Source of the DNA: Lachnospiraceae bacterium
GTDB taxonomy: Bacteria; Bacillota; Clostridia; Lachnospirales; Lachnospiraceae
Direction: 5' to 3'
Assembly: GCA_017620255.1 (NCBI GenBank)
Contig: JAFZQU010000031.1
Span: forward strand, 1-64,000
Length of the DNA: 64,000 nucleotides
In this document: piece by piece, positions 43,979-59,821 of the stretch
Numbering within the stretch: the stretch's first letter is position 1
How the letters are laid out: every line of letters starts with the position of its first letter
Notes under the pieces: model-generated
The model's database searches: none
Told to the model about the DNA's origin: nothing
The model's input: the letters and a program-made list of their open reading frames with translations, nothing else
Position numbers and translations under genes: made by a program

Positions 43979-44020
43979 CAGGGCTAGGAGGATTCGAACC
44001 TCCAAATGACGGAGTCAGAG
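43979..44020 (-). repeat. attachment site copy (left), 3' fragment of tRNA-Gln
   Basis: 42 bp identical to 61101-61142: from the anticodon loop to the discriminator base of tRNA-Gln on the minus strand. The sequence to its right (AACCTTGCC) no longer fits a tRNA, so this copy is not functional. Confidence 0.95.
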
Positions 44021-45107: not shown

Positions 45108-45142
45108 CATAATATGAAAAGAGAGTATTGAGTGATTTTTCT

Positions 45143-46456
45143 TTATACCGCTTCCTGCTCCGCAAACAGTCTCTCCATCTGCTCCTCGCTCAATTCCTCA
45201 TGATATTCCTTTCTCTCCATAAATCGCTTCTCCTGAAGCTTATCCATATATTTCTTATGTTCCATCTGCCTTTTGTGCAAAGCGTCCACAGCTGCCTTTT
45301 CATCCGCTTTTCTCTTCCTTGCCCTTGCTTCCTGCCGCCGTCTTTCTTCCTGTCTTCTGGTGGCATTGCTTTGATTTCGATTTTCAGACGTTCTAATTTC
45401 CATAGTCGTATCATCCCCGCTAACCTTTACACCCAGACCGTTTTGTTTCATGGACAGATCCACATGTTGTATTGTACCTGCTCCCCCGCTTTCACGAAGA
45501 AAAACTCCCGTGGATCTGATCACTCCATCTCTGTACCCGTCTGTTCCACCAAGTGAAAACTCTGTCTGTTGTTCTCCGAGATATATGGCACCGATATCCG
45601 CTTCCTTCAGATCCATAAGCACGTCTTTACCGTTCTCATCCTTGCACCATACCTTTAGTTTTGAGAATATCTCATCGTTCTCATCGATCCATCCGTTACC
45701 GTCACTGTCATATTCACGAAGCTCGCCAAATCCGTCACCGCTCTTTGTTCCGAACAGTTCATTGCCGTCATCTATTTTTCCGTTGTCGTCCTTATCCAAG
45801 GCAAGAAAGCCCGAACCCTTTCCAAGCATGGATATTTCATCCTCGATCCCGTCAGCATCAAGGTCAAACTTAAAAGTCTGATCCCGCACATCCGCTGTAT
45901 TAGATCCTATATTGACAATGAGCGGATCAAACAAGGCATCTGCCATAGTCGGGACACTCACGTTCATATATTCCATGTAGCTCCTGCTCATAAGAATATT
46001 TACATTAAAATCAATCGTCCGGCCGTCTTCCGTACATGCCTTACCGCAAGCATGAAATCCAGTTTCTTCGGTTTCAGAATATGTGACCATGCGCGTGGAA
46101 TATCCGCCGATACCTGCTCCGCCCATCATTCCAAAAGAGGCAAATCTCTTAAACATCGCGGCCAATGTGTTGTTTTGAAAAGCCGATGCGCTTGCTCCTG
46201 TTCCAAACAGGTTTCCGGAAGTAATTTTCCCGAGCCCCTTGAAATATCCGATATCATCCATATTGTACGCACCCATCCCATTGTTATCCTTACCGGATTG
46301 ATACGTGTCCCTTGTAAGGGCAGTATCTTTATTGGTTCCGTACCTATTGATCATTCCCATAAAACTGCTTTGATATCCGGCCAATCTGTTAGTTATTCCG
46401 GTCTGCGTATAGTTTCTTCCCGATAACATGTTTACTGTGCTGTCTGCTATTCTCAT
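45143..46456 (-). CDS. Cargo protein with EF-hand/VCBS-like calcium domain, no Sec signal
   Basis: 437 residues. N-terminus MRIADSTVNMLSGRNYTQTG is polar with no signal peptide. Residues ~195-305 hold a calcium-type domain: FDLDADGIEDE, LDKDDNGKIDDGNELFG, DSDGNGWIDENDEIF and AIYLGEQQTEFSL, the pattern known from RTX/VCBS-type exported proteins. The last ~95 residues are a charged coiled coil (R/E/K rich). A strong GGAGG precedes the ATG. It is last in the cargo row, behind hairpin leader A. Function unknown; exported proteins with this domain are common, so secretion without Sec is suspected. Confidence 0.75.
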   Translation of the reverse strand: MRIADSTVNMLSGRNYTQTGITNRLAGYQSSFMGMINRYGTNKDTALTRDTYQSGKDNNGMGAYNMDDIGYFKGLGKITSGNLFGTGASASAFQNNTLAAMFKRFASFGMMGGAGIGGYSTRMVTYSETEETGFHACGKACTEDGRTIDFNVNILMSRSYMEYMNVSVPTMADALFDPLIVNIGSNTADVRDQTFKFDLDADGIEDEISMLGKGSGFLALDKDDNGKIDDGNELFGTKSGDGFGELREYDSDGNGWIDENDEIFSKLKVWCKDENGKDVLMDLKEADIGAIYLGEQQTEFSLGGTDGYRDGVIRSTGVFLRESGGAGTIQHVDLSMKQNGLGVKVSGDDTTMEIRTSENRNQSNATRRQEERRRQEARARKRKADEKAAVDALHKRQMEHKKYMDKLQEKRFMERKEYHEELSEEQMERLFAEQEAV

Positions 46457-46501
46457 GTTTCTACCTCCAGTTCATTTTCTTGTCTGTTTGCACTTTGTCC
46501 G

Positions 46502-46554
46502 AAAAAAGACTGCGCTCAAAGTTCAATCCTTTGAACGCAGCCACCTTCCTTAGC
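46502..46554 (-). promoter_or_regulatory. Leader hairpin A (GGA loop or terminator)
   Basis: Minus strand: CTGCG-TTCAAAG pairs with CTTTGAG-CGCAG and is followed by TTTTTT, an intrinsic terminator (arms 46510-46521, 46529-46540). The same bases can instead form GTTCAA-AGGA-TTGAAC (46521-46536) with GGA in the loop. A second GGA lies in GCTAAGGA (46547-46554). It is 45-100 bases before the ATG of the 437-residue gene and 63 bases behind the stop of the upstream gene. Confidence 0.6.
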
Positions 46555-46602
46555 TTTTATTATGATTTTTAACAGTATTATGTCTCAGATTTCTGTGAGG
46601 TT

Positions 46603-48792
46603 CTAGATTATGCTCATCTCCATGAGTTTCTCTACAAATCGCTCATAGAAAGCCCTCTCCTTCTCCCTTGCCGCAAGCACCTTCGTGCTCCTTGTTGTAT
46701 TCGGCTCCAGGGGATGGTCAAGAGCATAAATGGCGTCCTGCGCTGCCTGGATGGCCGAGCTTATCGTACTCCCCAGAACATCATCTGGATCATATCCGTT
46801 ATACTGGCGAATAAATCGCTGTATCATAAATTGCGGGATATGATCAAGCTTACCGGTGGCCGATAACCCCTGTCCGTCCATTCCGATTTCATCTGCAACC
46901 TCCAGCCATGCTCTTTTTACATTCTCCGGTGCATTCTTCCCGATACCCCAAAATGCCTGTTCTCTCATTGCACGAACTCTGTCTCTGTAATCTGTGAACG
47001 TTTTATCTCCTGTACTGTTTATGCCCAGAGCTCTCTGGTTTGCTTCTATTTGGGCATTCCAGTTATCCCACATTTCCTGCTCCGTAAATACCTTGCCGAT
47101 AAAATGAGTATTATTGATATATTCTGCAAAAGGCTCGGTCAGGAGATCTCCCAGATTCTTTCCCTCTTGTAATCCCTTCTCAACATTTATCTTTCCATTA
47201 TCGGTGGAATCGAAATATGCACGGAATCCGTCAATATCAAAATCATCCTTCATGAAATCCTTCCAGAACTTCTCCTGTGGAGCGAACGTTAGATTCTGAT
47301 CCTTGGAAAAACCATTTAGAAACTTCTGAACCTTTTCATAACTGTCCGGGGAATCATAAGTTAGACTCCATAAATCCCTCTGCGATATCTTTCCCCCTTC
47401 ATCTTTTATTTCCTTACAGGAAATCCCCTTATCAGTATAGGCTGTGATATATCTGGTATTCACCGGAACAATCTCACCGGTATCAGGATTCGTGTACTGA
47501 TTGTGTTTTGAAACAATTGTTTCGGATATCGGATCGGTTGTGTTGTCAGAATCGACATATCCGTTTTTCAAAACGTTGATCTTTTTCCTGGTCTCAACAT
47601 CATCGAGATCCGCAAACAAGAGTGAGAATGCTTCTTCAGAGAATCCGCTTCCCCTCATTGCCCTGTCGAAAAAAGAGTTTATGGCGTCAAATATCTTATT
47701 CGCAAGACTTGCAAGAGAAGGCGCCGAATCACTGTACTCTTCAGCATACTGGCCTAACAAGCTGACACGATCTCCTCTGTCAAATATCCCGTCGAAATAG
47801 CTTGTATCCGTAAAATAGCTACTTGCTATCAGATCAGCAGTTTCATCCGTCTGCCTGATATACATGCACATTGCCGCAAACTCAGGGTAATCCATATCCT
47901 TCGGATCCAGCTCATACGGATCAAATACTCTTTCGAACGCCTCGCCGTTTTCATCAATGCCTGTTATCGTATATGTTTTATCCTTGCCGTCAGAATTGAT
48001 GATTATATTGAATGACTGCTCCGTTTCCCTGTAAGAATAGATCACTTCTCCATTGGAATTCTGCTGTACATAAGACTCCTTGGTCTTGATATTGGCTGTA
48101 ATGCATCTGGTGTATGCAGCCGGATCTCCATATCCTTTGCTGGCAATCGGAATACATGTGGCATCCATGTCACTTGACACCTCACTTTTCCTGGATACTT
48201 CTGTGATCATGTTCGTGCCATTATCAAGCCTTGTTTCAGCCCAACGTTCAAGTCCGGCAACAATGTTCTCACAGTTAAGTCCTTGATCATATGCCTGCGG
48301 AATGCCTAAAAATGTCTCTTTTGCATTTTGCAGTATCGCGGTCCAGTCTCTGTTCTTTGTCCATGCCATATCAGGATCGGAAAGATTACTGCAAAATCCA
48401 TTATATTCCGCCTGTGCCCCATACGCTGTCATTTTTCCGAACGATTTAATGCCGGTATTATCGATAAGCCCCTTATCATCCATATAACTCATCAGTGCGA
48501 ACATCTCCACTTTTGTAGCATTATGCGGATCAACATCATTTACTCTAACCTCATAATCTCCGACTTTGATGATAGGATCTTCTTCTGTTGATGAGTCCGC
48601 ATATTGGGCAATATACCCTATGTTACCAATCGTCATAACTCCGATATTTTTACCTTGGTCAGATGAAGCGGTCCGTGAAGTAGCACTCCCCATAAATTCT
48701 TGCCCGATAGAGTCCTCTCCACGATTTGATTTCGAGCCAAAGCTTCCATACTGGTACGTTTGATTAAAACTTGTTTGTACTGCAAATGACAT
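46603..48792 (-). CDS. Large cargo protein, unknown family, no Sec signal
   Basis: 729 residues from the ATG at 48792, chosen because AAAGGAGGG lies 6 bases before it; the upstream in-frame extension runs through leader hairpin B. The protein begins MSFAVQTSFNQTYQYGSFGS, polar and Ser/Gln/Tyr-rich, with no signal peptide or membrane segment. I do not recognise the whole. A late region (RALGINSTGDKTFTDYRDRV; KLDHIPQFMIQRFIRQYNGY) looks well folded. It is the first gene behind a LytTR-box promoter and is followed by the calcium-domain protein gene. An exported structural or effector protein is my inference. Confidence 0.7.
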   Translation of the reverse strand: MSFAVQTSFNQTYQYGSFGSKSNRGEDSIGQEFMGSATSRTASSDQGKNIGVMTIGNIGYIAQYADSSTEEDPIIKVGDYEVRVNDVDPHNATKVEMFALMSYMDDKGLIDNTGIKSFGKMTAYGAQAEYNGFCSNLSDPDMAWTKNRDWTAILQNAKETFLGIPQAYDQGLNCENIVAGLERWAETRLDNGTNMITEVSRKSEVSSDMDATCIPIASKGYGDPAAYTRCITANIKTKESYVQQNSNGEVIYSYRETEQSFNIIINSDGKDKTYTITGIDENGEAFERVFDPYELDPKDMDYPEFAAMCMYIRQTDETADLIASSYFTDTSYFDGIFDRGDRVSLLGQYAEEYSDSAPSLASLANKIFDAINSFFDRAMRGSGFSEEAFSLLFADLDDVETRKKINVLKNGYVDSDNTTDPISETIVSKHNQYTNPDTGEIVPVNTRYITAYTDKGISCKEIKDEGGKISQRDLWSLTYDSPDSYEKVQKFLNGFSKDQNLTFAPQEKFWKDFMKDDFDIDGFRAYFDSTDNGKINVEKGLQEGKNLGDLLTEPFAEYINNTHFIGKVFTEQEMWDNWNAQIEANQRALGINSTGDKTFTDYRDRVRAMREQAFWGIGKNAPENVKRAWLEVADEIGMDGQGLSATGKLDHIPQFMIQRFIRQYNGYDPDDVLGSTISSAIQAAQDAIYALDHPLEPNTTRSTKVLAAREKERAFYERFVEKLMEMSII

Positions 48793-48819
48793 GTTTGAGC
48801 CCTCCTTTTGAGTAATAAA

Positions 48820-48870
48820 ACAGCGCCTGATTTCAGTTTCACTCCATTGAAATCCGACGCTGTCCATAGC
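48820..48870 (-). promoter_or_regulatory. Leader hairpin B (GGA loop or terminator-like)
   Basis: Minus strand: ACAGCG...CGCTGT (48858-48863 with 48820-48825) enclosing GATTTCA/TGAAATC, followed by TTTTATT. Alternative: TTTCA-ATGGAG-TGAAA (48837-48852), GGA in a hexaloop. GCTATGGA lies at 48863-48870. All this is in the leader between the promoter at 48920 and the ATG at 48792. Confidence 0.65.
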
Positions 48871-48919
48871 ATTTATTTTTCGGTTGTATGATTTGGTTAT
48901 CGGTTCATTCCTAAGATTC

Positions 48920-48969
48920 ATTATACGTTCAGCATAAACAGACCATAAAATATCATAAAACGACTATAA
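48920..48969 (-). promoter_or_regulatory. Promoter with LytTR box 1 (before the 729-residue gene)
   Basis: Minus strand: TTATAGTCG (48961-48969) and TTATGGTCT (48940-48948) are 21 bases apart; a third partial copy TTATGCTG is at 48930-48937. TATAAT (48920-48925) is a perfect -10, with the proximal box covering the -35. This is the layout of LytTR-activated promoters such as those of AgrA. Confidence 0.7.
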
Positions 48970-50244
48970 GATGGTCACGGCAGTAAATTCTTTTTCATCA
49001 CAGGAAATTGCAAAACTGCCATCATACTTATCGATCACGCCCTGAACATTTGACAACCCGATCCCTTGTCCGTCCCTTGAACCGTTCTGGACATGGTTAT
49101 CTGTAATATCCACCTTTTGAACGACCGGATTCCTTACAGTAAAGATCATCTTGGAATCCTTCTCAACAAGTTTCACCTGTATAGATGCAGGTTTCCCGCA
49201 CGTCTTCGCTTTTTCACATTCATGTATTGCGTTTTCAAGAAGATTTCCCATAACTATGACAATATCATCATCCGAAAGTCGGATATTACACATATCACTG
49301 ATGGTGAAGACCATTCCTATATCTTCGCTTTTGGCGATCCGATAAAACTGATTCAGAACGGCATTTACAACCGGATGCCCTGCATTGACTTCCGACATTT
49401 CCACAGCGATGCTTTTCGTCAATTGTTCTGTGAACTCTATAGCCGTCTCCACGTCTCCGTTTTTGAGCAATTCCTCAACCGTAGCCAGTTGTTTTTTATA
49501 ATCATGAAGTTTCCGTCCCTGCCGTTCATAAAGAGACTGCATATCGTGAAAAGCACGAAGTTGGTTCTGCTTGCTCTCTATCTGTATTTCCGATAAACGT
49601 AGCTTTTCATCTTTCATCAACGAATCCTGCAATAGGAACATGGAAAAAATGTTTACCGCAAGCAACACAGCTGAAACTATGCCTTGAAAAATCCCAACGC
49701 CAGCCGGTGACACAAAAAACATATAAAAAAACAATCCCACAATCATTGTGACAAGAGGTACCCATATGTACGATCTCAGCATCACATGTTCTTTTTTCAA
49801 GCATTCCTTAATTCGATGCAGCTTTTTTCGAAGGACAAACTCTATACAAAACGCAATGAGGCAGGACAAACACGCCATCAGATTTAAAAAAGTCGGATTA
49901 TTGCTTCGGCTGAGCTGAAGCGGCACACATACCAAGATCTGTGTAAGGATTTGTAAAAGTACTGCCGCACCGGAAAAAAATACGCTCATGATCCAATCAG
50001 ATCTGTAACAGATCCTGACAAAAAGCATATGTATAGCAATATATGTTATCAGTTTTATCGAATAATATTCATTTGGTATCTTTTCAAACAGCGCAGAATT
50101 TCCGCCTACAGAAAGCGCAAGCAGAATAAACGAAATCAGTTTTTGAATCTTCCCCCATTTAAAAAAAATAAAGGAATCATAATAATAGATGCACAGTGCT
50201 GTTTCAAATACACAAGTGCTTATAAATACCAACCATGCAGTCAT
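48964..50244 (-). CDS. AgrC-like GHKL sensor histidine kinase
   Basis: 426 residues. Six to seven membrane segments fill residues 1-~205, then a short helical linker with the phosphate-accepting His in RKLHDYKKQLATVEELL, and an ATP-binding GHKL domain with the N-box VMGNLLENAIHECEKAK and the G-box DGQGIGLSNVQGVIDKY. This is the AgrC/NatK type paired with LytTR regulators and usually senses peptides. It overlaps the regulator gene by 4 bases (ATGA). No AgrB or AgrD is nearby, so its ligand is unknown. Its end overlaps LytTR box 1. Confidence 0.9.
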   Translation of the reverse strand: MTAWLVFISTCVFETALCIYYYDSFIFFKWGKIQKLISFILLALSVGGNSALFEKIPNEYYSIKLITYIAIHMLFVRICYRSDWIMSVFFSGAAVLLQILTQILVCVPLQLSRSNNPTFLNLMACLSCLIAFCIEFVLRKKLHRIKECLKKEHVMLRSYIWVPLVTMIVGLFFYMFFVSPAGVGIFQGIVSAVLLAVNIFSMFLLQDSLMKDEKLRLSEIQIESKQNQLRAFHDMQSLYERQGRKLHDYKKQLATVEELLKNGDVETAIEFTEQLTKSIAVEMSEVNAGHPVVNAVLNQFYRIAKSEDIGMVFTISDMCNIRLSDDDIVIVMGNLLENAIHECEKAKTCGKPASIQVKLVEKDSKMIFTVRNPVVQKVDITDNHVQNGSRDGQGIGLSNVQGVIDKYDGSFAISCDEKEFTAVTIL

Positions 50245-50951
50245 AGTTTTTTCCCCTCATACAGTGTATACTCTTGTTTAACCTGCTTATATCTGGCTTT
50301 TGGTACCGATATCTGTCTATCATTATCAAGCGTCAGGATATAACTGTTGATATTTCTGATATGTTCCATGTTCACAAGAAAGCTTTTATGTGTCCTCAAA
50401 AAGCCCTGCGCCTTGAGCCGTTCCTCAAGTTCTTCCAGTTTTTCATAGATCTGGTATGTCCGATCCTTTAGTTGAATCAAACACTTATGCCCTTCTGTTT
50501 CAATCAAGATGATCTCTGATGTCTTCAACCGAATATTTCCTTCAACGCAGTCAAAGCAAATCGTTTTGGATCTTCTTTGCAGTTCATTGCAGATATCATC
50601 CATACATTCTGAAAATGTACGATCAAGGTCATCCTTGATCAGAAAGCGACTCGCTCGCACCTTGTATCCGTCCAATGCAAAGCTCATAAACGATGTCACA
50701 AGAATGATCGGAACATCTTCAAGTCTCTCCCGGATTCTTTTGGCTACCGTCAGACCATCCATCGCGTCCATATTGATATCCAAAAAAATGATATCCACAG
50801 TTTTCCCTTTGCGGATGGCATCAAGCATTTCGACACCTGATCGATATCCTGATACCGCAAATTCCATATGATTTTTCCTAGCATATTCGTCAATAAGCGT
50901 TTTCAGCCTTGCAATGTCCTCTAAATCATCGTCACAAATAAAAACCTTCAT
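50241..50951 (-). CDS. LytTR family response regulator
   Basis: 236 residues. Receiver domain with D58 as phospho-acceptor in DIIFLDINMDAMDG and the acidic pocket ICDDDLED at the start; C-terminal LytTR DNA-binding domain (KTICFDCVEGNIRLKTSEII; FLRTHKSFLVNMEHIRNI). It is the partner of the kinase. LytTR proteins bind 9-bp direct repeats about 21 bp apart, and three such sites lie in this cargo, one before its own gene, so it probably activates itself, the 729-residue gene and the 249-residue gene. Confidence 0.92.
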   Translation of the reverse strand: MKVFICDDDLEDIARLKTLIDEYARKNHMEFAVSGYRSGVEMLDAIRKGKTVDIIFLDINMDAMDGLTVAKRIRERLEDVPIILVTSFMSFALDGYKVRASRFLIKDDLDRTFSECMDDICNELQRRSKTICFDCVEGNIRLKTSEIILIETEGHKCLIQLKDRTYQIYEKLEELEERLKAQGFLRTHKSFLVNMEHIRNINSYILTLDNDRQISVPKARYKQVKQEYTLYEGKKL

Positions 50952-50986
50952 AATCTCCCCGCTTTCATTTTTCTGGAAAATTAAAC

Positions 50987-51033
50987 AGCGCCGGTCTCAA
51001 TGCTCAATCCATTGATCTGGCGCCATCCATAGC
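50987..51033 (-). promoter_or_regulatory. Leader hairpin C (GGA loop or terminator-like)
   Basis: Minus strand: GGCGCC (51019-51024) pairs with GGCGCT (50987-50992) around TCAATG/CATTGA, then TTTAATTTT. Alternative small stem TCAA-TGGA-TTGA (51004-51015). GCTATGGA at 51026-51033. A tiny frame M-V-Q-K-L-W-M-A-P-D-Q-W-I-E-H runs through it. It precedes the response-regulator ATG by 36 bases. Confidence 0.62.
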
Positions 51034-51057
51034 TTCTGAACCATATATAATCTATTT

Positions 51058-51134
51058 ATTCTATCGTCTCAAGATTTCCTGAAATAAACCCCTATTGCGT
51101 GAATCGACTATAATATGACATAAAACGACCATAA
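51058..51134 (-). promoter_or_regulatory. Promoter with LytTR box 2 (before the response regulator)
   Basis: TTATGGTCG (51126-51134) and TTATAGTCG (51105-51113) on the minus strand, 21 bases apart, then GATTCACGCAAT and a -10-like TAGAAT (51058-51063), 42 bases from the proximal box. The same geometry and the GATTCACG-AAT core recur in box 3. Confidence 0.7.
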
Positions 51135-51143
51135 TATACGAAT

Positions 51144-51165
51144 CGGGCCACAAAAACGTGACCCG
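51144..51165. terminator. Hairpin after the 316-residue gene
   Basis: CGGGCCAC (51144-51151) with GTGACCCG (51158-51165), 54 bases behind the stop at 51219. It has no T run after it on the minus strand. It lies directly before LytTR box 2. Confidence 0.5.
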
Positions 51166-51218
51166 AAAGGATATATATTGAATGGTAGTACCATACAATA
51201 CCTGTTAAGATTTCTCTT

Positions 51219-52169
51219 CTACGAAATCACGGCGTGCTGCCGTCTGTATGTGTCATTATCTTTCTGAACAAGTTCCATTTCTACCTGACGGAGTTCAACC
51301 GCTATTTCTTTCTTTTTTTGCTCATTTGCCATGTTCATTTCCTGCTCCAAACGAGCTTTCTTTTCTTTCAGTTCCCTTATCTCACGATCAACCCGGTCCG
51401 TGTTCATTGTAGTCGATTCGCTCTTCTTAGAATCCTCAGAAACCTTTTTCCCTGATTCAGAAAGTGACGCAACATATGATTTTGCTGAATTCTGCATTTC
51501 CTCAGCAAAGCCCTCAGGGATCTTCTCCGGTTCATAATACCTGATGTCGCCTCTTCCCATCTCCAGTTTGATATCCTGAAGCCTATTTACGGCCTTGGCA
51601 ACCATCTCGCTCTCTTTTTGGTGCTGCAGGCCAAATCTTGATTCCACATAGTCATCAAATTCCTGCTGAAGAATCAACAACTCATCTTCTTTGGAAAGCT
51701 TTCTGTATCCATCTTCTGAATCCGGATCAGCTATATATCTGATTCTGGTACCGTCATCATGTCCGGAAACTACTTCCTTGGCCATCGTCTGAAAACTATT
51801 CATGATGATATTCTTCTTATCTTCAATCGTGATATTCTTATCCGGGTCTTCCTCTTTCAGCTTGGCTATTTCATCCTGTACTTCTCTTGACAAACGGTTT
51901 CTGAAGTTCTCAATCGGCTGATGTTCTGCATAAAACTCCATCTGCTTCTGTTCCGCCTCCAAGTCCACGCTCCCGTGAAGTTTGCTTCCGTGCAACGCTC
52001 TGAGGCCTTCTTCTGAAATATTCAGCTTTATCACCGGAAGGTCTTTGCCTGCTTCAGTATCTTTAAACTTTACAGGCTGATTATTCTGCTCCTTAGCCAA
52101 ATCAAATAGGTTTATCTGAGGCCGCTGATAATGAAATCCTTCAACGTTTCCAAATAAGTGTACCTGCAT
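51219..52169 (-). CDS. Cargo protein, unknown, acidic/helical, no Sec signal
   Basis: 316 residues, not assigned. It starts MQVHLFGNVEGFHYQRPQIN and has LNISEEGLRALHGSKLHGSV, a segment I associate with hypothetical proteins of Lachnospiraceae. The last ~85 residues are a charged coiled coil (ELKEKKARLEQEMNMANEQK and beyond). No signal peptide or membrane segment. CAGGAGGG precedes the ATG. It follows the 320-residue gene by 20 bases, so it shares that transcript. Confidence 0.65.
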   Translation of the reverse strand: MQVHLFGNVEGFHYQRPQINLFDLAKEQNNQPVKFKDTEAGKDLPVIKLNISEEGLRALHGSKLHGSVDLEAEQKQMEFYAEHQPIENFRNRLSREVQDEIAKLKEEDPDKNITIEDKKNIIMNSFQTMAKEVVSGHDDGTRIRYIADPDSEDGYRKLSKEDELLILQQEFDDYVESRFGLQHQKESEMVAKAVNRLQDIKLEMGRGDIRYYEPEKIPEGFAEEMQNSAKSYVASLSESGKKVSEDSKKSESTTMNTDRVDREIRELKEKKARLEQEMNMANEQKKKEIAVELRQVEMELVQKDNDTYRRQHAVIS

Positions 52170-52189
52170 ACGCTACCCTCCTGTTCCGA

Positions 52190-53152
52190 TCAAACTCTGT
52201 AATCCATAGCATGATACTTTATTGCATTCAGCATATTTGATATCTGTGAACGGAAACCCGATATATCCTGACCTAGCATCCTTGCAAGATCACTGCTGCC
52301 ATAATTCCCGTAAGCCATATAAGCGGGTGTTACAAGTTTCTTATATTTCTCCATAAGCTCATCAACAGATGATTTGTCCGTGATATCAGTGTTCGCAAAG
52401 GCATCGTTAATCTTGCTGATAAGATCCTTATTTGTTGCAGAATTAGTGGGTGATATCATACCACCCATCAATGCGCCATCGGTCACGCCCATCGTGGAAC
52501 GTACCTGATCAAGCACTTCTTTGCTTATAGGCTGACCCATTCCATAATACTCAGATGCTTTGGTTCCCGTTACCTGCACGGCGCCGTTCCTTGCAAGTGT
52601 ATCCTTTTCAAGTTGAACCAGCGCATCGTTATAATCCTGCATAGCCTTGTTTACTACTGCGGCCTGCTTTTCCGTGAGATTCTGACTCGCATATTCCCTG
52701 ACTGCATTTGTTGCAATACCCATTTCCGCGTAGTTTCTGTATGATATGTTTGTATTCTTCCCGATACCGCATCCTATGCTGTCAGCCGCCGCTTTCATTA
52801 CAGATCGGCACTCTTCAAGTTCTTCTTTTGTGAAAGTCTCTCCGCCGACCGTATAATTACCGTTACTATCTGTAACAAGCGGCATGTCCTTTCTGAAAAA
52901 CACGTCATTCGAGTAATTGCAATATGCGCCTTTACCCGCTTTAATGCCTTCCAGGCCTGCACCTTCAAGAGAAACGCTTTCTCTGTAGGAGCCGTTCTGT
53001 TTGGATTCTTCAACCAGATTCTTTGAGGATGCTTTCATTTCATCCCACTTTTCCTTAAGGGCAGACTGGTTAATCTTATATGTATATGGTTCGTTGTTGA
53101 CTCTCTGGGGAATTATTTCGGTAGTATTTAAGGTATATAGATTGATTGACAT
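52190..53152 (-). CDS. Cargo protein, unknown, sigma-D-driven
   Basis: 320 residues starting MSINLYTLNTTEIIPQRVNN, a polar N-terminus without a signal peptide. The middle is helical with KAAADSIGCGIGKNTNISYR, and the end SQISNMLNAIKYHAMDYRV is hydrophobic and basic. The style (M-x-I-N-x-Y, helical middle) recalls DUF3879/DUF4885-type proteins seen near flagellar genes, but I cannot confirm it. It has AAGGAGGG before the ATG, a GGA-hairpin in the leader and a sigma-D promoter 80-110 bases upstream. Confidence 0.7.
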   Translation of the reverse strand: MSINLYTLNTTEIIPQRVNNEPYTYKINQSALKEKWDEMKASSKNLVEESKQNGSYRESVSLEGAGLEGIKAGKGAYCNYSNDVFFRKDMPLVTDSNGNYTVGGETFTKEELEECRSVMKAAADSIGCGIGKNTNISYRNYAEMGIATNAVREYASQNLTEKQAAVVNKAMQDYNDALVQLEKDTLARNGAVQVTGTKASEYYGMGQPISKEVLDQVRSTMGVTDGALMGGMISPTNSATNKDLISKINDAFANTDITDKSSVDELMEKYKKLVTPAYMAYGNYGSSDLARMLGQDISGFRSQISNMLNAIKYHAMDYRV

Positions 53153-53181
53153 GCGTTTAACCCTCCTTGGTGTTCAAAAAT

Positions 53182-53199
53182 CCTTCATTCCATTGAAAG
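53182..53199 (-). promoter_or_regulatory. Leader hairpin D (GGA in loop)
   Basis: Minus strand CTTTCA-ATGGAA-TGAAGG: a 6-bp stem with a hexaloop carrying ATGGA. It is 30 bases before the ATG at 53152 and within a transcript from the sigma-D promoter. The ribosome site AAGGAGGG is a second possible GGA site. Unlike A-C it has no terminator form. Confidence 0.6.
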
Positions 53200-53233
53200 A
53201 TATCTTTTCGTCTGATAACACTTATCTAAATAT

Positions 53234-53261
53234 ATATCGGCATATCTTTATACAGTATTTA
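53234..53261 (-). promoter_or_regulatory. Sigma-D (sigma-28) promoter of the 320-residue gene
   Basis: Minus strand TAAA (53258-53261), 16 bases, GCCGATAT (53234-53241): perfect -35 and -10 elements at an accepted spacing. It places a mobile-element gene under the flagellar sigma factor of the host. Confidence 0.8.
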
Positions 53262-53272
53262 TAGTATTCACT

Positions 53273-53308
53273 CCGGGCACCCGTAATCAGGTAAGAACGG
53301 ATGCCCCG
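53273..53308. terminator. Hairpin after the 249-residue gene
   Basis: CCGGGCACCCGT (53273-53284) with ACGGATGCCCCG (53297-53308), 23 bases after the stop at 53332, with two mismatches. It separates this gene from the sigma-D promoter. There is no T run. Confidence 0.5.
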
Positions 53309-53331
53309 AATGAACAAAACAGAAAAATGGC

Positions 53332-54081
53332 CTAAAAGAAGCTGTTAAATCCATAGCCGGAATACAAGCCGCCATAGCCACCGTACCCGTCAAAACCGCC
53401 AAAGGCATTATAGTATGATCCGTTGCTTCCGTATACACTTCCACCGTAAAGCTGCTGTGTATTGGCAGATAACTGAACTCTCGCGGCAGAGGAAGATACG
53501 ATCTGTGCATATGATCCATTCCCGTTGAACAATGATTTTACCGTATTCATGTCCGCTTTCTTAAAAGCTTCCTCATCAATCGACAGCTTTCCATCAACGC
53601 CTACATTGATTCCTGCTGCCGACAGACTGTTCTTCATGATCCCAGTCATTCTTGTCATGCTGGAACCGGTTGTCCTGATATTGGCGTTATCCGTTTTCGA
53701 AAGCGCTGTAACCGTGTCATTATAATTACTTACAAAATCGGAAACCGCCTTATAGGTCTTGTCAGCATCATATGCGTCCTTGTTGCCAAAAAGACTGTTC
53801 TTTCCCGTATCAGTAAGAACCTTTGCGGATGATGTAAGTTCTGCCGCCTCATTTCCTACAGTTCTTATCGCTGTCTGGGCATTATTCGCAGGCGTCTTTA
53901 AGCGATTATATGCGCTCATATTCTGAAGCTGATTGTTTCCTGATGTTCTGGAATAAGCCTTCGCCAGCTTTGAATATGCATTGGATCTTATACTGGACAG
54001 TTGAGAATAGCTGTTAAAAATGGAATTCGCATATCCGCCGTATCCAAGAATTGCCCCTATATTACTGTTGGTTCTGAACAT
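53332..54081 (-). CDS. FliD C-terminal-like protein, no Sec signal
   Basis: 249 residues. Residues ~105-205 (KAVSDFVSNYNDTVTALSK; TGIMKNSLSAAGINVG; DGKLSIDEEAFKKAD; TVKSLFNGNGSYA) match the C-terminal pattern of FliD, the flagellar hook cap, including the D-G-K-L-S-I/L-D-E-E-x-x-K/L block. The FliD N-terminal domain is missing. The N-terminus is Ser/Asn/Tyr-rich and the end is a G/Y/F-rich tail (GGFDGYGGYGGLYSGYGFNS). Flagellar-type export, not Sec, would suit it. It is first behind LytTR box 3. Confidence 0.7.
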   Translation of the reverse strand: MFRTNSNIGAILGYGGYANSIFNSYSQLSSIRSNAYSKLAKAYSRTSGNNQLQNMSAYNRLKTPANNAQTAIRTVGNEAAELTSSAKVLTDTGKNSLFGNKDAYDADKTYKAVSDFVSNYNDTVTALSKTDNANIRTTGSSMTRMTGIMKNSLSAAGINVGVDGKLSIDEEAFKKADMNTVKSLFNGNGSYAQIVSSSAARVQLSANTQQLYGGSVYGSNGSYYNAFGGFDGYGGYGGLYSGYGFNSFF

Positions 54082-54137
54082 ATTCTTTTGCCTCCCTTCT
54101 GTAACGAATTCAGAAACGCCATAACAGTGCCTCTAAA

Positions 54138-54214
54138 ACTATAATCGCCCATTTTCAAATTAAATCAACCGCCATTACGTGAATCGCCTATAAATTGACG
54201 TAAAAAGACTATAA
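54138..54214 (-). promoter_or_regulatory. Promoter with LytTR box 3 (before the FliD-like gene)
   Basis: TTATAGTCT (54206-54214) and TTATAGGCG (54185-54193) on the minus strand, 21 bases apart, then GATTCACGTAAT and a -10-like TATAGT (54138-54143), again 42 bases from the proximal box, as in box 2. Confidence 0.7.
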
Positions 54215-54216
54215 AG

Positions 54217-54240
54217 GCCGGGTCACGGTGATGACCCGGC
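54217..54240. terminator. Hairpin after mobA
   Basis: GCCGGGTCA (54217-54225) with TGACCCGGC (54232-54240), 30 bases after the mobA stop at 54270, a perfect 9-bp stem followed by a partial T stretch (CTTTATAGTCTTTTT) on the minus strand. It separates the mobility module from the cargo. Confidence 0.7.
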
Positions 54241-54269: not shown

Positions 54270-55898
54270 TCAATGATCGAAATCTATATCCAGATCCCGG
54301 TATATCGATGTCGTCTGTGACTGCTCAGGCTCCGGTTCCGGAATAGAATTCACTTTGATCAACTCTTTATATTTCCGATAATAGATAAAAACATTTTCGG
54401 GGATTCTGTCTTCCGGAGGAAACTCGGCTTCATTTATAGCCTGCATCTCTTCCAGCAACTGACGGAGATTATGTACATCCTGTCGAACCAGCAACACTTC
54501 ATAAACGTTGAGTGGAACTACATAATAATTTCCGCCGATATCAACAGAATCCATAAAATCAGTATTCAAAACGGAAGCCGCCCCGTTTTTTCCGCTCTGA
54601 CTGCTCAGAATATACATGGATGGACCTTCTTTCCCGACAGAATCCGTTCCTCTATCGATTGAACTCTGTAAAGGTTTCAGTACGGGCGGATCCTGTTGTG
54701 CCATATTTGTAACAGCCACGTCTTCTAACAGTCCCGGTGTAATGAGCCAGTATCTCATGATCATTTCATCTCTGACCTTAACAAAAAAATCACTAAACCG
54801 CATTTCATAGGTGACGGCTAGATCATCTTTCATGGTAACGAAAATGTTTTCATCTGCCAGTTTTTTAGCATAATCAACGCTGATCAGTTTCGGGAAGATA
54901 TGATCACGTGCCTTGTTGAAATCAAAGCATTCTCCCAGTTCATCCCGTTGACGTACTATACGCTCTTCCTCTGTTTCTATATGTATAGGCTGCTCCATCG
55001 GAATTTCTTCATCCGCAATAGAGGCTTCAACATCGGCATAATAATCCTCAAGTTCCTTTCTCTCACGCTCCTCTTGTTCCTGCAATGCTTGCAGTCGTTT
55101 AAATTCCTGAATGAGCATTTCTTTTCCAATATTCATATAGAAAGTCTTATTCAGATTCGAATCTCTGACTTTCTCTCCATTTTCATTTTCAAAGGTAATA
55201 TGCTTCCGATTTTCTTCCCATGTGGTGTGCCACCCGCTATCCGTCATCCGGTCAATAAACTCCTCCCGGCTGAGGCAACCCTCCATAGCCTTTACTACGG
55301 CCAATCCGCAGTCTGCAACAAAACTCTTCCCGGATTCCTCCTGCAGCATATGATACTTGTCCTTCGACCAGCCGGAAATTGTTCCTGGCTCAATGGAAGT
55401 GCCGTTGAAATGATGTCCTTTTTCTGCAACGGACAATCCTCTTTCCCGACACATTTCGTTTGTCAGTTCTTTCATTCGCTGGAGATCTTTCTTGGAAGTG
55501 TGGATCTTGTGACCGTCCAGATAGGAAACGGTATTGGTAACCATGTGAATATGGATATGATCTTTGTCCATGTGTATTGCAAACAGCGTCTGAAATCCGG
55601 CAAACCATTTTTCCACAAATTCCCTGGCAAAATCAAACGCCTCTTCAACGGTGATCTTCTCATCCGGATGAAAACTGATCACCGAATGTCTGTACATGCG
55701 TCCTCTGTCTTTTCCCCACAGTTTCTTTTCATCAACAAACGCTTTGTATATACTGTCCCAGTTGATATCTGTCGGCGACGGACCGGTCATCGCAATCAGA
55801 TCCTCTCTGACTTTTGCATCGCCGAGGACGTACTCGATGCAATTTCTCATCGCCCCGTGTGTTTTTGTTGTGTTATTGATTTCCTTATTGATTGCCAT
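54270..55898 (-). CDS. mobA: MobA-type relaxase (MOB-P family)
   Basis: 542 residues. The N-terminal relaxase domain has GAMRNCIEYVLG (catalytic Tyr), YRHSVISFHPDEKIT and the metal motif AIHMDKDHIHIHMVTNT (H-x-D-x-x-H-x-H-x-H). The C-terminal ~280 residues are helical and acidic. It nicks oriT and carries the strand into the recipient, using another element's conjugation pore. GGGAGGAGG precedes the ATG. Its start lies inside mobC by 52 bases. Nothing suggests damage. Confidence 0.93.
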   Translation of the reverse strand: MAINKEINNTTKTHGAMRNCIEYVLGDAKVREDLIAMTGPSPTDINWDSIYKAFVDEKKLWGKDRGRMYRHSVISFHPDEKITVEEAFDFAREFVEKWFAGFQTLFAIHMDKDHIHIHMVTNTVSYLDGHKIHTSKKDLQRMKELTNEMCRERGLSVAEKGHHFNGTSIEPGTISGWSKDKYHMLQEESGKSFVADCGLAVVKAMEGCLSREEFIDRMTDSGWHTTWEENRKHITFENENGEKVRDSNLNKTFYMNIGKEMLIQEFKRLQALQEQEERERKELEDYYADVEASIADEEIPMEQPIHIETEEERIVRQRDELGECFDFNKARDHIFPKLISVDYAKKLADENIFVTMKDDLAVTYEMRFSDFFVKVRDEMIMRYWLITPGLLEDVAVTNMAQQDPPVLKPLQSSIDRGTDSVGKEGPSMYILSSQSGKNGAASVLNTDFMDSVDIGGNYYVVPLNVYEVLLVRQDVHNLRQLLEEMQAINEAEFPPEDRIPENVFIYYRKYKELIKVNSIPEPEPEQSQTTSIYRDLDIDFDH

Positions 55899-56239
55899 AT
55901 CGGTGATACCTCCTCCCGTATGGTCGATATTTCGTGATAAAGTCTGTCAAAGGTTTCCTGCCCAGGTAATTCACCTGTCGCATTGGCTACATGAGCCATT
56001 TGGTTGACGTTAGTTCCCATTCCTCTTAACTGCTTATCAATATCATCAAGCAGCCGGTTCTGCAGGATCACATCCTTCATACTGTCAGCACCCATAATCT
56101 CGGCACCCAGCGTTGCGTTGATCACATATGACTGTAGCGTCTGACCTGACAGACGGACATTGTCCATCAGCCGTTCATATTCTGTTGGCGAAAACCGAAC
56201 GCTGATCAGTTTGTTTCTTGTGCGGTTTGGTCTGCTCAT
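55847..56239 (-). CDS. mobC: MobC-type relaxosome protein
   Basis: 130 residues from the ATG at 56239 (AAAGGAG before it); the longer frame runs into the G+C-rich oriT-like region. It has RNKLISVRFSPTEYERLMDN, a ribbon-helix-helix, and RLLDDIDKQLRGMGTNVNQM, the C-terminal motif of MobC (N-x-N-Q-x-A). It helps the relaxase to find and open oriT. It overlaps mobA by 52 bases. Confidence 0.92.
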   Translation of the reverse strand: MSRPNRTRNKLISVRFSPTEYERLMDNVRLSGQTLQSYVINATLGAEIMGADSMKDVILQNRLLDDIDKQLRGMGTNVNQMAHVANATGELPGQETFDRLYHEISTIREEVSPIWQSIRKSITQQKHTGR

Positions 56240-56269
56240 ATGATCAACTCCTTTCTGGGTAATCCAAAA

Positions 56270-56429
56270 GGGCGGCGCCCTGTTGGTCAGGTGCAGGGCA
56301 GATGCCCTAGCGTGGGGGTGAAGGCCGGCAGAAAGATCCGGTGGATCTTTGCGGACGGTTGTAACCCGAATGCGTGCCGGGTGTGCAGAGGGCAGAGCCC
56401 TTGTCGGGGGTTCCGAGGGGGCAGCGCCC
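56270..56429. repeat. Four short GGGC-GCCC palindromes
   Basis: GGGCGGCGCCC (56270-56280), AGGGCAGATGCCCT (56295-56308), AGGGCAGAGCCCT (56389-56401) and GGGCAGCGCCC (56419-56429). They share the GGGC-(3 or 4)-GCCC form and lie in the most G+C-rich part of the element. Confidence 0.7.
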
Positions 56430-56501
56430 ACCGGCAAGTTTAGGATGACGGCGAGTAGCCGTTATCCGGTGCGAAGTGGCTTGCCACTTTGCGAAACTTG
56501 C

Positions 56502-56733: not shown

Positions 56734-57747
56734 TCACCTCGAAGCAGCATCCCGCGCAATTTTGCCCGCTAGATGCTTCACGAACCCTTCCGCATTAGCA
56801 AACCTGGCATCTTCGTAACTCTTTTCGAAGTTAGCAAACTTACCGAAGCGCGATTCCAACTCTTCACGGATCAGATATGATGTACCGCCGGTAAAATGAA
56901 GCTCCAGCGTATCATAGTTCTTCCAATTCTTTTTCAGAGCAGACTCGATATCATCAACAAAAATACGTACTGCATCGTCGATCACAGCCTTCGAATACTT
57001 CTGTTTCTCTTCATCATGCTGTTTGACGTATCCTCTCCGGATTGCATCGATCACCTGCTGGTCAGAAACCTCGATCTCATGATCCTGCAGCCTTTTCTGT
57101 ACATCTGCAATCAGACGACGTCCGCCGAGCTTATTGGTATGCGCATCCTCGATCACAACAATGCCATCATGAACGGAAGTCATGTTCATATTGAGGCCCC
57201 CGATATCAATAATCGCTGCGTCCATACCGGGTCTGAAGCATTCCGGATGCCGATCCTTGTAACCAATAGCTTCCGCACAGACCAGCCGCTTATCGATCGT
57301 AAAGCTGATCCTTTTACCGTCAACGACACATGCGATCAGACCTTTAGGAACAATGCTCTTGCAATACTCGTCACGCTCTTCCACGTTCATGAAAATCGTA
57401 AGCGGGCAGCCGATCACAACATTAACGGTATCTCCGTCACTGACATTTCTTGCAATACCATAAAGCGTGCAGACCTTATTCACTTTGCTGTTCTTTGAGA
57501 ACGAGTCATCAGCTTTGACGGGCAGTTCGCCGGATCCGATCGTATATTCCATTCCGATTCCGGTTGCATTGCTTGAAAAAGTATGTACACCTGTGAGCAG
57601 ATCGGTTCCGCCGTTTGTTCCTATACCCATAGCAGTTGGAAAACTGTCTCTTCTGAGAGTTTCTCCCGTTATTCCTTTTTCTAAAACACAGATTTTTGTG
57701 TCAGACTTTCCGCAGTCAATCGCTGCGAGCAATGTATTTCGTGTCAT
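56734..57747 (-). CDS. parM: ParM/StbA family actin-like partition protein
   Basis: 337 residues. Actin-fold motifs: LLAAIDCGKSDTKICVLEK (phosphate 1), DAAIIDIGGLNMNMTSV (phosphate 2) and LELHFTGGTSYLIREEL (adenosine). It resembles plasmid ParM/Alp proteins that push DNA copies apart as filaments. Plasmids need this; an integrated element does not, so it may act while excised or replicating. It follows a 118-residue gene by 12 bases, which may encode its adaptor. Confidence 0.88.
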   Translation of the reverse strand: MTRNTLLAAIDCGKSDTKICVLEKGITGETLRRDSFPTAMGIGTNGGTDLLTGVHTFSSNATGIGMEYTIGSGELPVKADDSFSKNSKVNKVCTLYGIARNVSDGDTVNVVIGCPLTIFMNVEERDEYCKSIVPKGLIACVVDGKRISFTIDKRLVCAEAIGYKDRHPECFRPGMDAAIIDIGGLNMNMTSVHDGIVVIEDAHTNKLGGRRLIADVQKRLQDHEIEVSDQQVIDAIRRGYVKQHDEEKQKYSKAVIDDAVRIFVDDIESALKKNWKNYDTLELHFTGGTSYLIREELESRFGKFANFEKSYEDARFANAEGFVKHLAGKIARDAASR

Positions 57748-58132: not shown

Positions 58133-59362
58133 TTAATATGATGTATTCCTTTTGTTAGTGGGAATCGGAACAAATTGTTTCGTCGTGGTTCCGACCTTTA
58201 TCTTCTTCCTTGCCGCGATATAGTACTGCATCGTCGTGGATTCCAGATCCCCGATATATGCTGCGATTTCCTTCACACCTGCTCCGCTGTCATACATTCT
58301 CGTCGCAAAGGTTCTCCGCAAAACATGCAGTCCACTGATTTCAGAGTCAAACCCCAGCTTCTTGTAAATCGTTGCCATACAATGTTCCAGCATTGTCGCT
58401 GTATAGGGATTTCCGTTCTTCGAGCGGCAGATCAGATCATCTCTGTTTCCCGGGTTGGCTTCAAATATCAATGCCAGATCGTTTCGGGCCGTATCACTCA
58501 GCTGAAGAACTCTAGCCTTCTGATTCTTAGTCGTGCCTTCTACCGCTTTATAATTGTTTTCCCCATCTTTTTTGTTACGGTTAAGGACCATAGACGTACT
58601 CTTATTTATGGTAAGAAGACCGTTTTGACTGTCAAAATCTCTCCATCTGAGACTGATCAGTTCTCCGACTCTCATCCCGGTATGCAAAAGCAGCCTTCCA
58701 TACAACCCGCCGGCATACCGGTACCGTCCGTTTGACCAAAGCTTCAGGCATTCATCTTCAAACAGAGCCTCTTCATCTTCAGACAAAACAATTACATCCG
58801 CTTCCGATTCACTTCGGGTCTCTATTTTTGCCAAGCGTTTCATCACGGCTTTTTTTATGATCCGAACAGGGTTCGAAGTAAGGTCTCCACGGGTCATCCC
58901 CCACTCATAAGCTGCATTCAGAACATCTAACGCCTTTTTTATGGAAGAAACGGACAAATCCTTTTTGATCAGGCTATTGATATGTGCTTCTATATCAGCC
59001 GACGTTACGGACAATACACGCATTTTCCCAATCGGAAATTTCCCGATCTGATTTCTGATCGTGATCTCTCTTCTGTCTGCAGATTTAGGTTTTAGTTCTT
59101 CGCCCCTCATTTGGAAATAAAGATGACGCGTGCACAATTCTTCAACCGTATCCTGGTCCGTAATGACCGTACGGTATTTTTTCTCGTGCCACGCCTCCTC
59201 TTTCTCTTTCATTAGCCGCATACAAACTACGCGGTTTTGCGCTGTGACAGTCAGCGTCTTCCGCTTACCGTCATCCTTGAGGCCTACTCCTTTACGATAT
59301 GTAACTGTCCCGTCCGGGTTATCCTTAAAGGAACCCAGACCCTTAACACCTCGTTTTGCCAT
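58133..59362 (-). CDS. int: Tyrosine recombinase integrase
   Basis: 409 residues. An arm-binding N-terminus (KGLGSFKDNPDGTVTYRKGV), a SAM-like core domain (IKKDLSVSSIKKALDVLNAA) and the catalytic domain: first Arg in LLHTGMRVGELISLRW, H-x-x-R in HVLRRTFAT, the nucleophile Tyr in LESTTMQYYIA. It is the element's integrase acting at tRNA-Gln. It follows the excisionase by 9 bases and shares its promoter. Confidence 0.95.
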   Translation of the reverse strand: MAKRGVKGLGSFKDNPDGTVTYRKGVGLKDDGKRKTLTVTAQNRVVCMRLMKEKEEAWHEKKYRTVITDQDTVEELCTRHLYFQMRGEELKPKSADRREITIRNQIGKFPIGKMRVLSVTSADIEAHINSLIKKDLSVSSIKKALDVLNAAYEWGMTRGDLTSNPVRIIKKAVMKRLAKIETRSESEADVIVLSEDEEALFEDECLKLWSNGRYRYAGGLYGRLLLHTGMRVGELISLRWRDFDSQNGLLTINKSTSMVLNRNKKDGENNYKAVEGTTKNQKARVLQLSDTARNDLALIFEANPGNRDDLICRSKNGNPYTATMLEHCMATIYKKLGFDSEISGLHVLRRTFATRMYDSGAGVKEIAAYIGDLESTTMQYYIAARKKIKVGTTTKQFVPIPTNKRNTSY

Positions 59363-59371: not shown

Positions 59372-59587
59372 TTATACAGTGAATGATTTGTACTCGTATT
59401 GATCCAACCATTCGTTCAGCGCCTTGGAAGTAACAATATACCGCCCGCCGAGCTTAATTGATGGAAAGCCCTTGCTTTTGATCAACGCATATGCTTTATC
59501 TCTTCCAATATGAAGTCTGCTTGCGAGATCTTTTGCTGACATCACGGAATAGTCTTCCTGCTTCTGGTTTTGTGAGTTATTTCCCAT
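59372..59587 (-). CDS. xis: Excisionase/helix-turn-helix protein
   Basis: 71 residues from the ATG at 59587 with GAGGAGGAG before it; the frame upstream is A+T-rich operator DNA. The core is MSAKDLASRLHIGRDKAYAL then IKLGGRYIVTSKALNEWLDQ, the winged-helix pattern of excisionases of Tn916 type (with a Lys-rich wing). It should bias the integrase to excision. It is first in the xis-int-118aa-parM operon. Confidence 0.88.
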   Translation of the reverse strand: MGNNSQNQKQEDYSVMSAKDLASRLHIGRDKAYALIKSKGFPSIKLGGRYIVTSKALNEWLDQYEYKSFTV

Positions 59588-59658
59588 ATACTCCTCCTCT
59601 CTCTGGTCTACACTCAGCTTTTTCTTATACGTCCTGATTTGTTTTTGATTCTTTTGAT

Positions 59659-59749: not shown

Positions 59750-59821
59750 AAAAATTGTTTCAGACCGCAAAATCTGTGCTATTATTAGTTTGTAAATGCT
59801 GTCACAGAAAGGATTACAGAT

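What the first reader, a model, noticed from the sequence alone, without database searches (positions are those of the whole stretch)
45143..54214. Mobile element cargo built like a flagellar-regulon add-on
Seen: seven cargo genes in one direction with a LytTR/GHKL two-component pair, five proteins without Sec signals (one FliD C-terminal-like, one calcium-domain), three LytTR-box promoters, a near-perfect sigma-D promoter and GGA-loop leaders. Known: sigma-D and CsrA control late flagellar genes in Firmicutes, and proteins with polar N-termini can leave by the flagellar export path. Inferred: the element uses the host flagellar system to export or regulate its own proteins. I know of no described system with this make-up.
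Basis: partly seen in the sequence, partly recalled or inferred. Interest (0 to 1): 0.82.

Follow-up and report, generated by a model that had tools for sequence, protein, structure and literature searches.

The report
Mobile element carrying flagellum-linked genes
A small piece of mobile DNA in a Lachnospiraceae bacterium carries a set of probably exported proteins whose genes have the switches of the host's flagellum control system, including an RNA element that matched no family in the Rfam library and also precedes many related genes in other members of this bacterial family.

Summary
Window 43979-61142 is a 17.1-kb integrative mobilizable element at tRNA-Gln with exact 42-bp att repeats. 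It carries seven same-direction cargo genes: five polar proteins without signal peptides and a LytTR/GHKL pair. Three LytTR boxes sit 41-42 bp before flagellar-sigma-like -10 sites; a consensus sigma-D promoter precedes gene B. The GGA-loop leaders are a real RNA element: two potential ANGGAN hexaloop hairpins, the second overlapping an intrinsic terminator (57 copies; 13 of 17 pairs covary; no Rfam match). In 348 family genomes the leader, DUF6033 proteins (some follow it) and cargo protein E are nearly confined to genomes with FlhA (34 of 35, 118 of 119, 95 of 97). CsrA is encoded in 34 of 35 leader-matched genomes. Gene B has another leader type: a GGA hairpin plus a GGA on the Shine-Dalgarno site. 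Protein E carries a FrpC-like calcium self-cleaving module, reported to act outside cells. So the cargo looks like an add-on to the host's late flagellar regulon. Regulation is well supported by sequence; export through the flagellar apparatus is likely but unproven; CsrA as binder and the direction of control are inferred, and folding alone favours the terminator.

The parts
43979..44020 (.). attL: exact 42-bp copy of the 3' end of tRNA-Gln
61101..61142 (.). attR inside tRNA-Gln (CUG), gene 61100-61173
58133..59362 (-). tyrosine integrase (PF00589 E 2e-19)
59372..59770 (-). HTH_17 excisionase-like protein
59822..60358 (+). HTH_3 repressor-like protein
54270..55898 (-). MobA/VirD2-type relaxase with DUF5688
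55847..56437 (-). MobC/NikA-like mobilization protein (frame as listed; its true start is probably further in)
56734..57747 (-). ParM/actin-like protein
54177..54217 (-). LytTR box before gene A (half-sites 54210 and, by eye, 54189)
54142..54148 (-). weak sigma-D-like -10 (GCGATTA), 41 bp after the proximal half-site
   Evidence: counted by eye
53332..54081 (-). gene A, 249 aa, FliD_C-like (PF07195 E 2e-7)
53234..53261 (-). sigma-D promoter of B, TAAA-N17-CCGATAT
53180..53201 (-). B leader hairpin, hexaloop ATGGAA; a second ANGGAN hexaloop (AAGGAG, 3-bp stem) lies on the Shine-Dalgarno site
52190..53152 (-). gene B, 320 aa, unknown family; relatives 24-98% identical
51219..52169 (-). gene C, 316 aa, unknown
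51097..51137 (-). LytTR box before the regulator gene (half-sites 51130 and 51109)
51061..51067 (-). sigma-D-like -10 ACGATAG
50981..51036 (-). two-hairpin/terminator leader of the regulator gene (R1, 53.0 bits)
50241..50951 (-). LytTR response regulator
48964..50244 (-). GHKL-type sensor kinase
48932..48972 (-). LytTR box before D (half-sites 48965 and 48944)
48897..48903 (-). sigma-D-like -10 CCGATAA
48816..48873 (-). two-hairpin/terminator leader of D (R1, 48.2 bits)
46603..48792 (-). gene D, about 729 aa, unknown; matched in 7 of 37 genus genomes, own genome included, two of them only by fragments
46500..46557 (-). two-hairpin/terminator leader of E, between D and E, without a promoter of its own (R1, 74.3 bits)
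45143..46456 (-). gene E, 437 aa: MRI-type N-terminus and a FrpC-like calcium self-processing module with Asp-Pro at 177-178

Best explanation
The element carries an add-on to the host's late flagellar regulon. The cargo is transcribed by the flagellar sigma factor (sigma-D/28) from promoters that, for A, the regulator gene and D, also carry boxes for the element's own LytTR regulator. Four transcripts (regulator, D, E, B) can form two ANGGAN hexaloop hairpins, the kind of site that a CsrA dimer binds (dimer spacing recalled). In B the second lies on the ribosome-binding site, as I recall for flagellin mRNA of Bacillus (translational control). In the regulator, D and E leaders the second hairpin shares its 5' strand with an intrinsic terminator, so binding should decide between stopping and reading through (probably antitermination). 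The products lack Sec signals, have polar N-termini and most likely leave through the flagellar export apparatus; E would then bind calcium outside, cleave itself at Asp-Pro and may link itself to a neighbour. Shown by sequence: promoters, leaders, covariation of the terminator and first hairpin, co-occurrence, domain. Inferred: CsrA as binder, formation of the second hairpin, direction of control, export route, activity of E.
For: Leader on 57 copies: 13 of 17 pairs change on both sides (6 of 500 shuffles reach that), 160 such cells, score 0.49 (0 of 500 each); on the unfitted seed alignment of 21: 9 of 17 pairs (15 of 500), 24 cells (0 of 500). ANGGAN in 56 of 57 for each loop. Of 37 distant leaders kept, 32 have [ACT]CGATA within 45 nt upstream against 3% of background windows (32 of 40 if the three dropped ones count); 25 of those 32 have TAAA/TAAG/TAAT at N16-17, no control made for that. 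Genomes matched at E <= 1e-4: 34 of 35 have FlhA, 34 of 35 CsrA, the exception being the same genome, G152, whose match I judge false. DUF6033: 118 of 119 in FlhA genomes; E family: 95 of 97. E homologs of other genera: 14 of 15 have a -10 site within 300 nt upstream, background 0.18. B leader stems change in step among relatives. E: FrpC module E 1e-5; Asp-Pro in 20 of 20 domain-level rows, window included. N-termini of 31 leader-following proteins: S/T/N/Q/G 0.40 against 0.25 in 31 controls, p 2e-8; 0 of 31 with a membrane-like segment against 13 of 31. Host csrA lies directly after a FliW gene.
Against: No expression, binding or secretion data. Folding favours the terminator in all eight leaders of this type that I folded; with both GGA loops forced open, most kept the terminator's outer stem with a larger loop, and only the D leader showed the second hairpin. 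That hairpin is conserved but does not beat shuffles (54 of 500 as high on cells paired). The seed was picked with a GGA pattern, so loop invariance is partly built in; A6 is fitted to the model. ANTAR proteins recognise the same layout and exist in 33 of 35 leader-matched genomes. The leader is absent from the six host flagellin loci and the csrA locus searched, was found in 1 of 10 DUF6033 loci and in 4 of 15 E loci of other genera, two of these weak. Charge of N-termini does not differ from controls (p 0.36). 66 FlhA genomes lack DUF6033 and 89 lack E; co-occurrence may reflect shared descent, not corrected for. 5 of 37 leaders fail the -10 test. Two B orthologs have only 3-bp GGA hairpins and one has none. 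FrpC calcium ligands were not mapped on E.
Confidence: 0.64

Rival explanations
1. The leaders are targets of an ANTAR protein, not CsrA: a phosphorylated ANTAR dimer binds the two hexaloops and prevents the terminator.
For: Same layout as in the ANTAR paper: two hairpins, hexaloops with A at 1 and G at 4, the second at the 5' base of the terminator (PMC3369931, passages). ANTAR in 33 of 35 leader-matched genomes.
Against: No ANTAR match in G096 (99% complete) and G235 (88% complete), which have clear leaders. Loop positions 3 and 5 (GGA) are fixed, which that paper does not require (but see the seed bias). In four B orthologs, two of them 98% identical, a GGA hexaloop lies on the Shine-Dalgarno site; CsrA competing with ribosomes there is described in PMC4347634 (passages). 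CsrA is missing only in G152.
Confidence: 0.17
2. The proteins are regulated with flagella but act inside the cell, for example as anti-sigma, chaperone or motility-tuning factors by which the element adjusts host motility.
For: Some short members of the wider set are charged and coiled-coil-like by eye; three LytTR-only proteins also follow the leader (L099, L107, L123).
Against: E has a module reported to work only outside cells in RTX proteins (PMC7078468, passages); N-termini are polar and unlike control proteins; A resembles an axial protein.
Confidence: 0.2
3. The proteins are exported by another Sec-independent route and only share the sigma-D programme.
For: Sigma-D drives genes outside the flagellum in other Firmicutes (recalled). 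Flagellar export of a Bacillus toxin was proposed, and Sec found instead (PMC3009653, start of abstract in a listing).
Against: No secretion gene among the 15 element proteins scanned; DUF6033 and E families are almost absent (1 and 2) from the 164 family genomes without FlhA.
Confidence: 0.2
4. The terminated leaders are small RNAs that titrate CsrA, letting the element loosen the host's flagellin control.
For: A terminated D or regulator leader would be a roughly 70-nt RNA with two GGA sites (lengths read); an element copy adds several sites; the terminator fold is the favoured one.
Against: In the terminator fold the second GGA is partly paired; of the 37 leaders kept, each has a reading frame nearby downstream; a FliW gene is present in this host.
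Confidence: 0.14

Closest known systems
Late flagellar (sigma-28/sigma-D) regulon of Firmicutes with CsrA-FliW control of flagellin
   Same: Same promoter type (Butyrivibrio -35 TAAA, -10 MCGATAa; PMC3720852, passages); the host has CsrA and FliW; the B leader is built like the flagellin leader of Bacillus as I recall it.
   Different: Targets are unknown accessory proteins on a mobile element, with LytTR boxes added, and three leaders lie on a terminator instead of the ribosome site.
ANTAR two-hairpin antiterminators
   Same: Two hexaloop hairpins, the second exclusive with an intrinsic terminator.
   Different: Loops are ANGGAN with GGA in all 57 copies (seed chosen by GGA); genes are flagellum-linked; two leader genomes lack an ANTAR match.
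FrpC/ApxIVA self-processing module
   Same: E aligns over about 108 residues with EF-hand-like loops (E 1e-5) and has a conserved Asp-Pro before them.
   Different: E is a short protein of a flagellated Gram-positive lineage; no RTX repeats seen; activity untested.
TwoAYGGAY RNA motif
   Same: Two GGA loops (name and loops recalled); listed from human gut, gamma-Proteobacteria and Clostridiales (PMC2864571 table).
   Different: It was not among the Rfam matches to 46000-55000 at E 5, which were three apparent chance hits.

Membership tests
Integrative mobilizable element | Integrase, att repeats at a tRNA, relaxase | tested here: met
   42-bp exact repeat, integrase, relaxase, MobC
sigma-D regulon | TAAA/CGATA promoter at conserved spacing | tested here: met
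   B in the window; 32 of 37 distant leaders with -10; D, regulator and A have weak -35, E none
sigma-D regulon | Transcription depends on sigD | not testable with these tools
   needs RNA-seq or reporter
CsrA target leader | Two ANGGA sites at dimer spacing | tested here: met
   56 of 57 per site; 14-18 nt between GGAs; dimer spacing recalled
CsrA target leader | Sites displayed in hairpin loops | tested here: inconclusive
   first hairpin paired in 91% of cells with covariation; second possible but not favoured by folding
CsrA target leader | CsrA encoded in the genome | tested here: met
   34 of 35; own genome yes
CsrA target leader | CsrA binds the RNA | not testable with these tools
   needs a binding assay
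ANTAR target | A1/G4 hexaloop pair overlapping a terminator | tested here: met
   second hairpin with the same reservation as above
ANTAR target | ANTAR protein in every genome with the leader | tested here: not met
   absent in 2 of 35, one of them 99% complete
Flagellar export substrate | Polar N-terminus, no Sec signal or membrane segment | tested here: met
Flagellar export substrate | Occurs only with FlhA | tested here: met
   118 of 119 for DUF6033, 95 of 97 for E; A-D not tested; shared descent not excluded
Flagellar export substrate | Secretion lost without FlhA | not testable with these tools
   needs a mutant secretome
FrpC self-processing module | Asp-Pro bond followed by EF-hand-like sites | tested here: met
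FrpC self-processing module | All calcium ligands and spacing as in FrpC | tested here: inconclusive
   the alignment starts 18 residues after the Pro; ligands not mapped
Agr-like peptide quorum sensing | AgrB-type processing protein and peptide gene | tested here: inconclusive
   no AgrB-type match among the 15 window proteins scanned; no search for a peptide gene

The most novel reading that the evidence does not exclude
A family-wide RNA switch in Lachnospiraceae lets CsrA control transcription termination (antitermination by two GGA hairpins, the second exclusive with the terminator), coupling many unknown secreted proteins to flagellar assembly; mobile elements spread such modules, adding a LytTR gate and a calcium-triggered clip-and-link protein sent out through the flagellum.
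Probability: 0.36. Interest if true: 0.9.

Novelty: new variant of a known kind. Interest (0 to 1): 0.75.

Why it matters
It would give a function frame to many unnamed proteins of Lachnospiraceae, add an RNA element that matched nothing in Rfam, extend CsrA from blocking ribosomes to steering terminators, and show mobile DNA plugging its cargo into the flagellar assembly programme. It also suggests that flagella of these bacteria may serve as an export route for a varied, horizontally moving protein set.

Tried and rejected
A plasmid search with B and viral-contig searches with A and with the E alignment gave no relative. Rfam at E 5: three apparent chance hits. PDB by sequence for A: none. 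The E protein in plasmids gave seven distant hits, two of them annotated as calcium-binding. Searching the six host flagellin loci and the csrA locus with R1 gave nothing.

Rows dropped: of the 40 fetched leader matches I left out three before the A6 and -10 counts: L113 and L114 (second loop lacks GGA, no -10 site, ligase gene downstream) and L115 (GGA present, but poor first hairpin, no -10 site, flippase-like gene downstream). This was a judgement; four kept ones also lack a CGAT-type -10 site. The genomes behind them (G152, G297, G339) stay in the 35; without them FlhA and CsrA are 32 of 32 and ANTAR 30 of 32. For the N-terminus test nine of 40 downstream proteins were left out (those three, three LytTR proteins, three with doubtful starts); starts of some others were picked by rule and may be wrong. 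For the E promoter count I set aside the five nearest loci (L135-L139, where E usually follows D); with them it is 15 of 20. R1 counts over genomes are lower bounds: strict filters and only 16 candidates scored per genome.

Considered and rejected: chance GGA hairpins; a purely element-private system (leaders occur elsewhere in the own genome and in other genera).

Odds: on rechecking I lowered the main reading from 0.66 to 0.64 and the novel case from 0.40 to 0.36, since one search shows that the second hairpin rarely wins even when the loops are forced open; the ANTAR rival rose slightly because the seed bias also weakens the fixed-GGA argument.

Papers: passages seen of PMC3720852, PMC3369931, PMC4347634, PMC7078468, PMC2864571; others only as listings with abstract starts. 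DUF6033 is in no held paper. I saw no paper on this leader in the listings, which cover only the held open library.
Full report
1. What is there. The finding lies in an integrative mobilizable element, 43979-61142. Its ends are an exact 42-bp repeat of the 3' part of tRNA-Gln (CUG). It has a tyrosine integrase, an excisionase-like HTH protein, a repressor-like HTH protein, MobC, a relaxase and a ParM-like protein. Seven cargo genes run on the minus strand: A, B, C, LytTR regulator, GHKL kinase, D, E. All 37 genomes of the genus searched have FlhA. Of the four named loci with gene B in genome contigs, three are titled Lachnospiraceae MAGs, one from sheep rumen, and one Bacillota. The host has CsrA, a FliW gene directly before csrA and six Flagellin_N matches.

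2. Promoters. Three 41-nt LytTR boxes have half-sites 21 bp apart and sit 41-42 bp before sigma-D-like -10 sites (A counted by eye): 54189 to 54148, 51109 to 51067, 48944 to 48903. Upstream stretches of relatives show what looks like the same layout (by eye). B has a consensus promoter, TAAA-N17-CCGATAT. A host flagellin gene has a TAAA/TCGATAA pair at about the same distance (by eye). The published Butyrivibrio consensus is TAAA and MCGATAa (PMC3720852).

3. Leaders. In relatives several of the same genes occur in larger, reshuffled clusters with the same leaders. Aligned, the leader is: hairpin P1 (GCT-ANGGAN-AGC), then a terminator hairpin T followed by U's. The 5' strand of T could instead pair as P2 (TTCA-ANGGAN-TGAA), with GGA in the loop. 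T is the lower-energy fold in the eight leaders of this type that I folded; with the GGA loops forced open, only the D leader showed P2, the others mostly keeping T's outer stem. So P2 would need a bound protein. Model R1, searched over 348 family genomes, matched 49 at E 0.01 and 35 at E 1e-4. I fetched the 40 matches at E 5.6e-5 or better that were not already held and kept 37. 32 of the 37 have a -10 site within 45 nt upstream; background 3%. On 57 copies (37 plus 20 from the clusters) 13 of 17 pairs of T and P1 change on both sides (6 of 500 shuffles), with 160 such cells (0 of 500); that alignment is fitted to the model, but the unfitted seed of 21 points the same way (9 pairs, 15 of 500; 24 cells, 0 of 500). 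P2 is conserved but nearly invariant and does not beat shuffles. Loops are ANGGAN in 56 of 57 for each hairpin, GGAs 14-18 nt apart; the seed had been picked by GGA.

4. Which protein. The layout equals the ANTAR antiterminator (PMC3369931), and the loops fit CsrA sites (GGA in hairpin loops, PMC4347634). Three points favour CsrA: CsrA is in 34 of 35 leader-matched genomes, the exception being a match I judge false; ANTAR has no match in two genomes with clear leaders; and in B a second ANGGAN hexaloop falls on the Shine-Dalgarno site in four of seven orthologs (two of them 98% identical), with stems that change in step. The regulator, D and E leaders do not cover the ribosome site, so control there should act on termination. 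Direction is inferred: binding P1 and P2 would weaken T. The leader was not found at the six host flagellin loci or the csrA locus, in 9 of 10 DUF6033 loci or in 11 of 15 E loci of other genera searched, so it marks a part of the flagellum-linked genes, not all.

5. Genes behind the leader. They are mostly unnamed proteins with polar N-termini, among them DUF6033-type proteins (two in the own genome, by Pfam match or position), FliD_C-like proteins (L110 by eye; L128 E 4e-5, just under Pfam's cut-off) and three LytTR-only proteins. DUF6033 occurs in 119 of 348 genomes, 118 with FlhA. The E family occurs in 97, 95 with FlhA. The exceptions, G270 (both lists) and G363, are draft genomes. E homologs of other genera (14 of 15) and DUF6033 genes (8 of 10) have a -10 site within 300 nt upstream, background 0.18. 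Shared descent could inflate these associations; I did not correct for it.

6. Protein E. Its middle aligns with the FrpC self-processing module (E 1e-5). An Asp-Pro pair precedes it in all seven rows of A2 and in the 20 domain-level rows from the 20 best loci (19 as DPL, one as DPI; window included). In RTX proteins that module cuts Asp-Pro and links to Lys only at extracellular calcium (PMC7078468, passages). Most of the 20 E homologs start with an MRI/MKI-type motif, reminiscent by eye of a host Flagellin_N protein that starts MSMRITNS (L046). This makes an extracellular site likely.

7. Judgement. Regulation by the host flagellar programme: strong on sequence evidence. CsrA as partner: likely. 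Export by the flagellum: likely but open. What the secreted set does for the element or host is unknown; adhesion, filament decoration or competition are all possible. Structure prediction could not be run.

Noticed in passing
window 44145-44937: Fic/DOC family protein (PF02661) with a small upstream ORF (58 aa), an antitoxin-like pair inside the element next to attL.
   Followed up: no
L113 and L114 (G152, G297): Nearly identical leader-like terminators without the second GGA before a D-Ala-D-Ala-ligase-like gene in two genera; probably an unrelated attenuator.
   Followed up: partly
L030, L032, L036, L011 and window 52190-53152: Two seemingly unrelated families (B and a 195-aa family) often end in a similar C-terminal motif, [IM]D[YF][RK][VIL].
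   Followed up: no
L097, L101, L104, L116, L030:6662-7249, L034:2336-2971: One small family (QKELDYLRRTNP-like motif, by eye) occurs in these loci, mostly right behind the leader, in several genera; two members scanned have no Pfam family above cut-off.
   Followed up: partly
L009:12853-13562: The LytTR regulator of this relative is split into two frames.
   Followed up: no
window 42174-42620: Lys/Ala/Thr-rich repetitive protein, histone-like in composition, just outside the element.
   Followed up: no
L003:2954-3613: The own genome holds a lone FliD_C-like relative of A (32% identical) with no cargo-like neighbours in the 10 kb read.
   Followed up: partly
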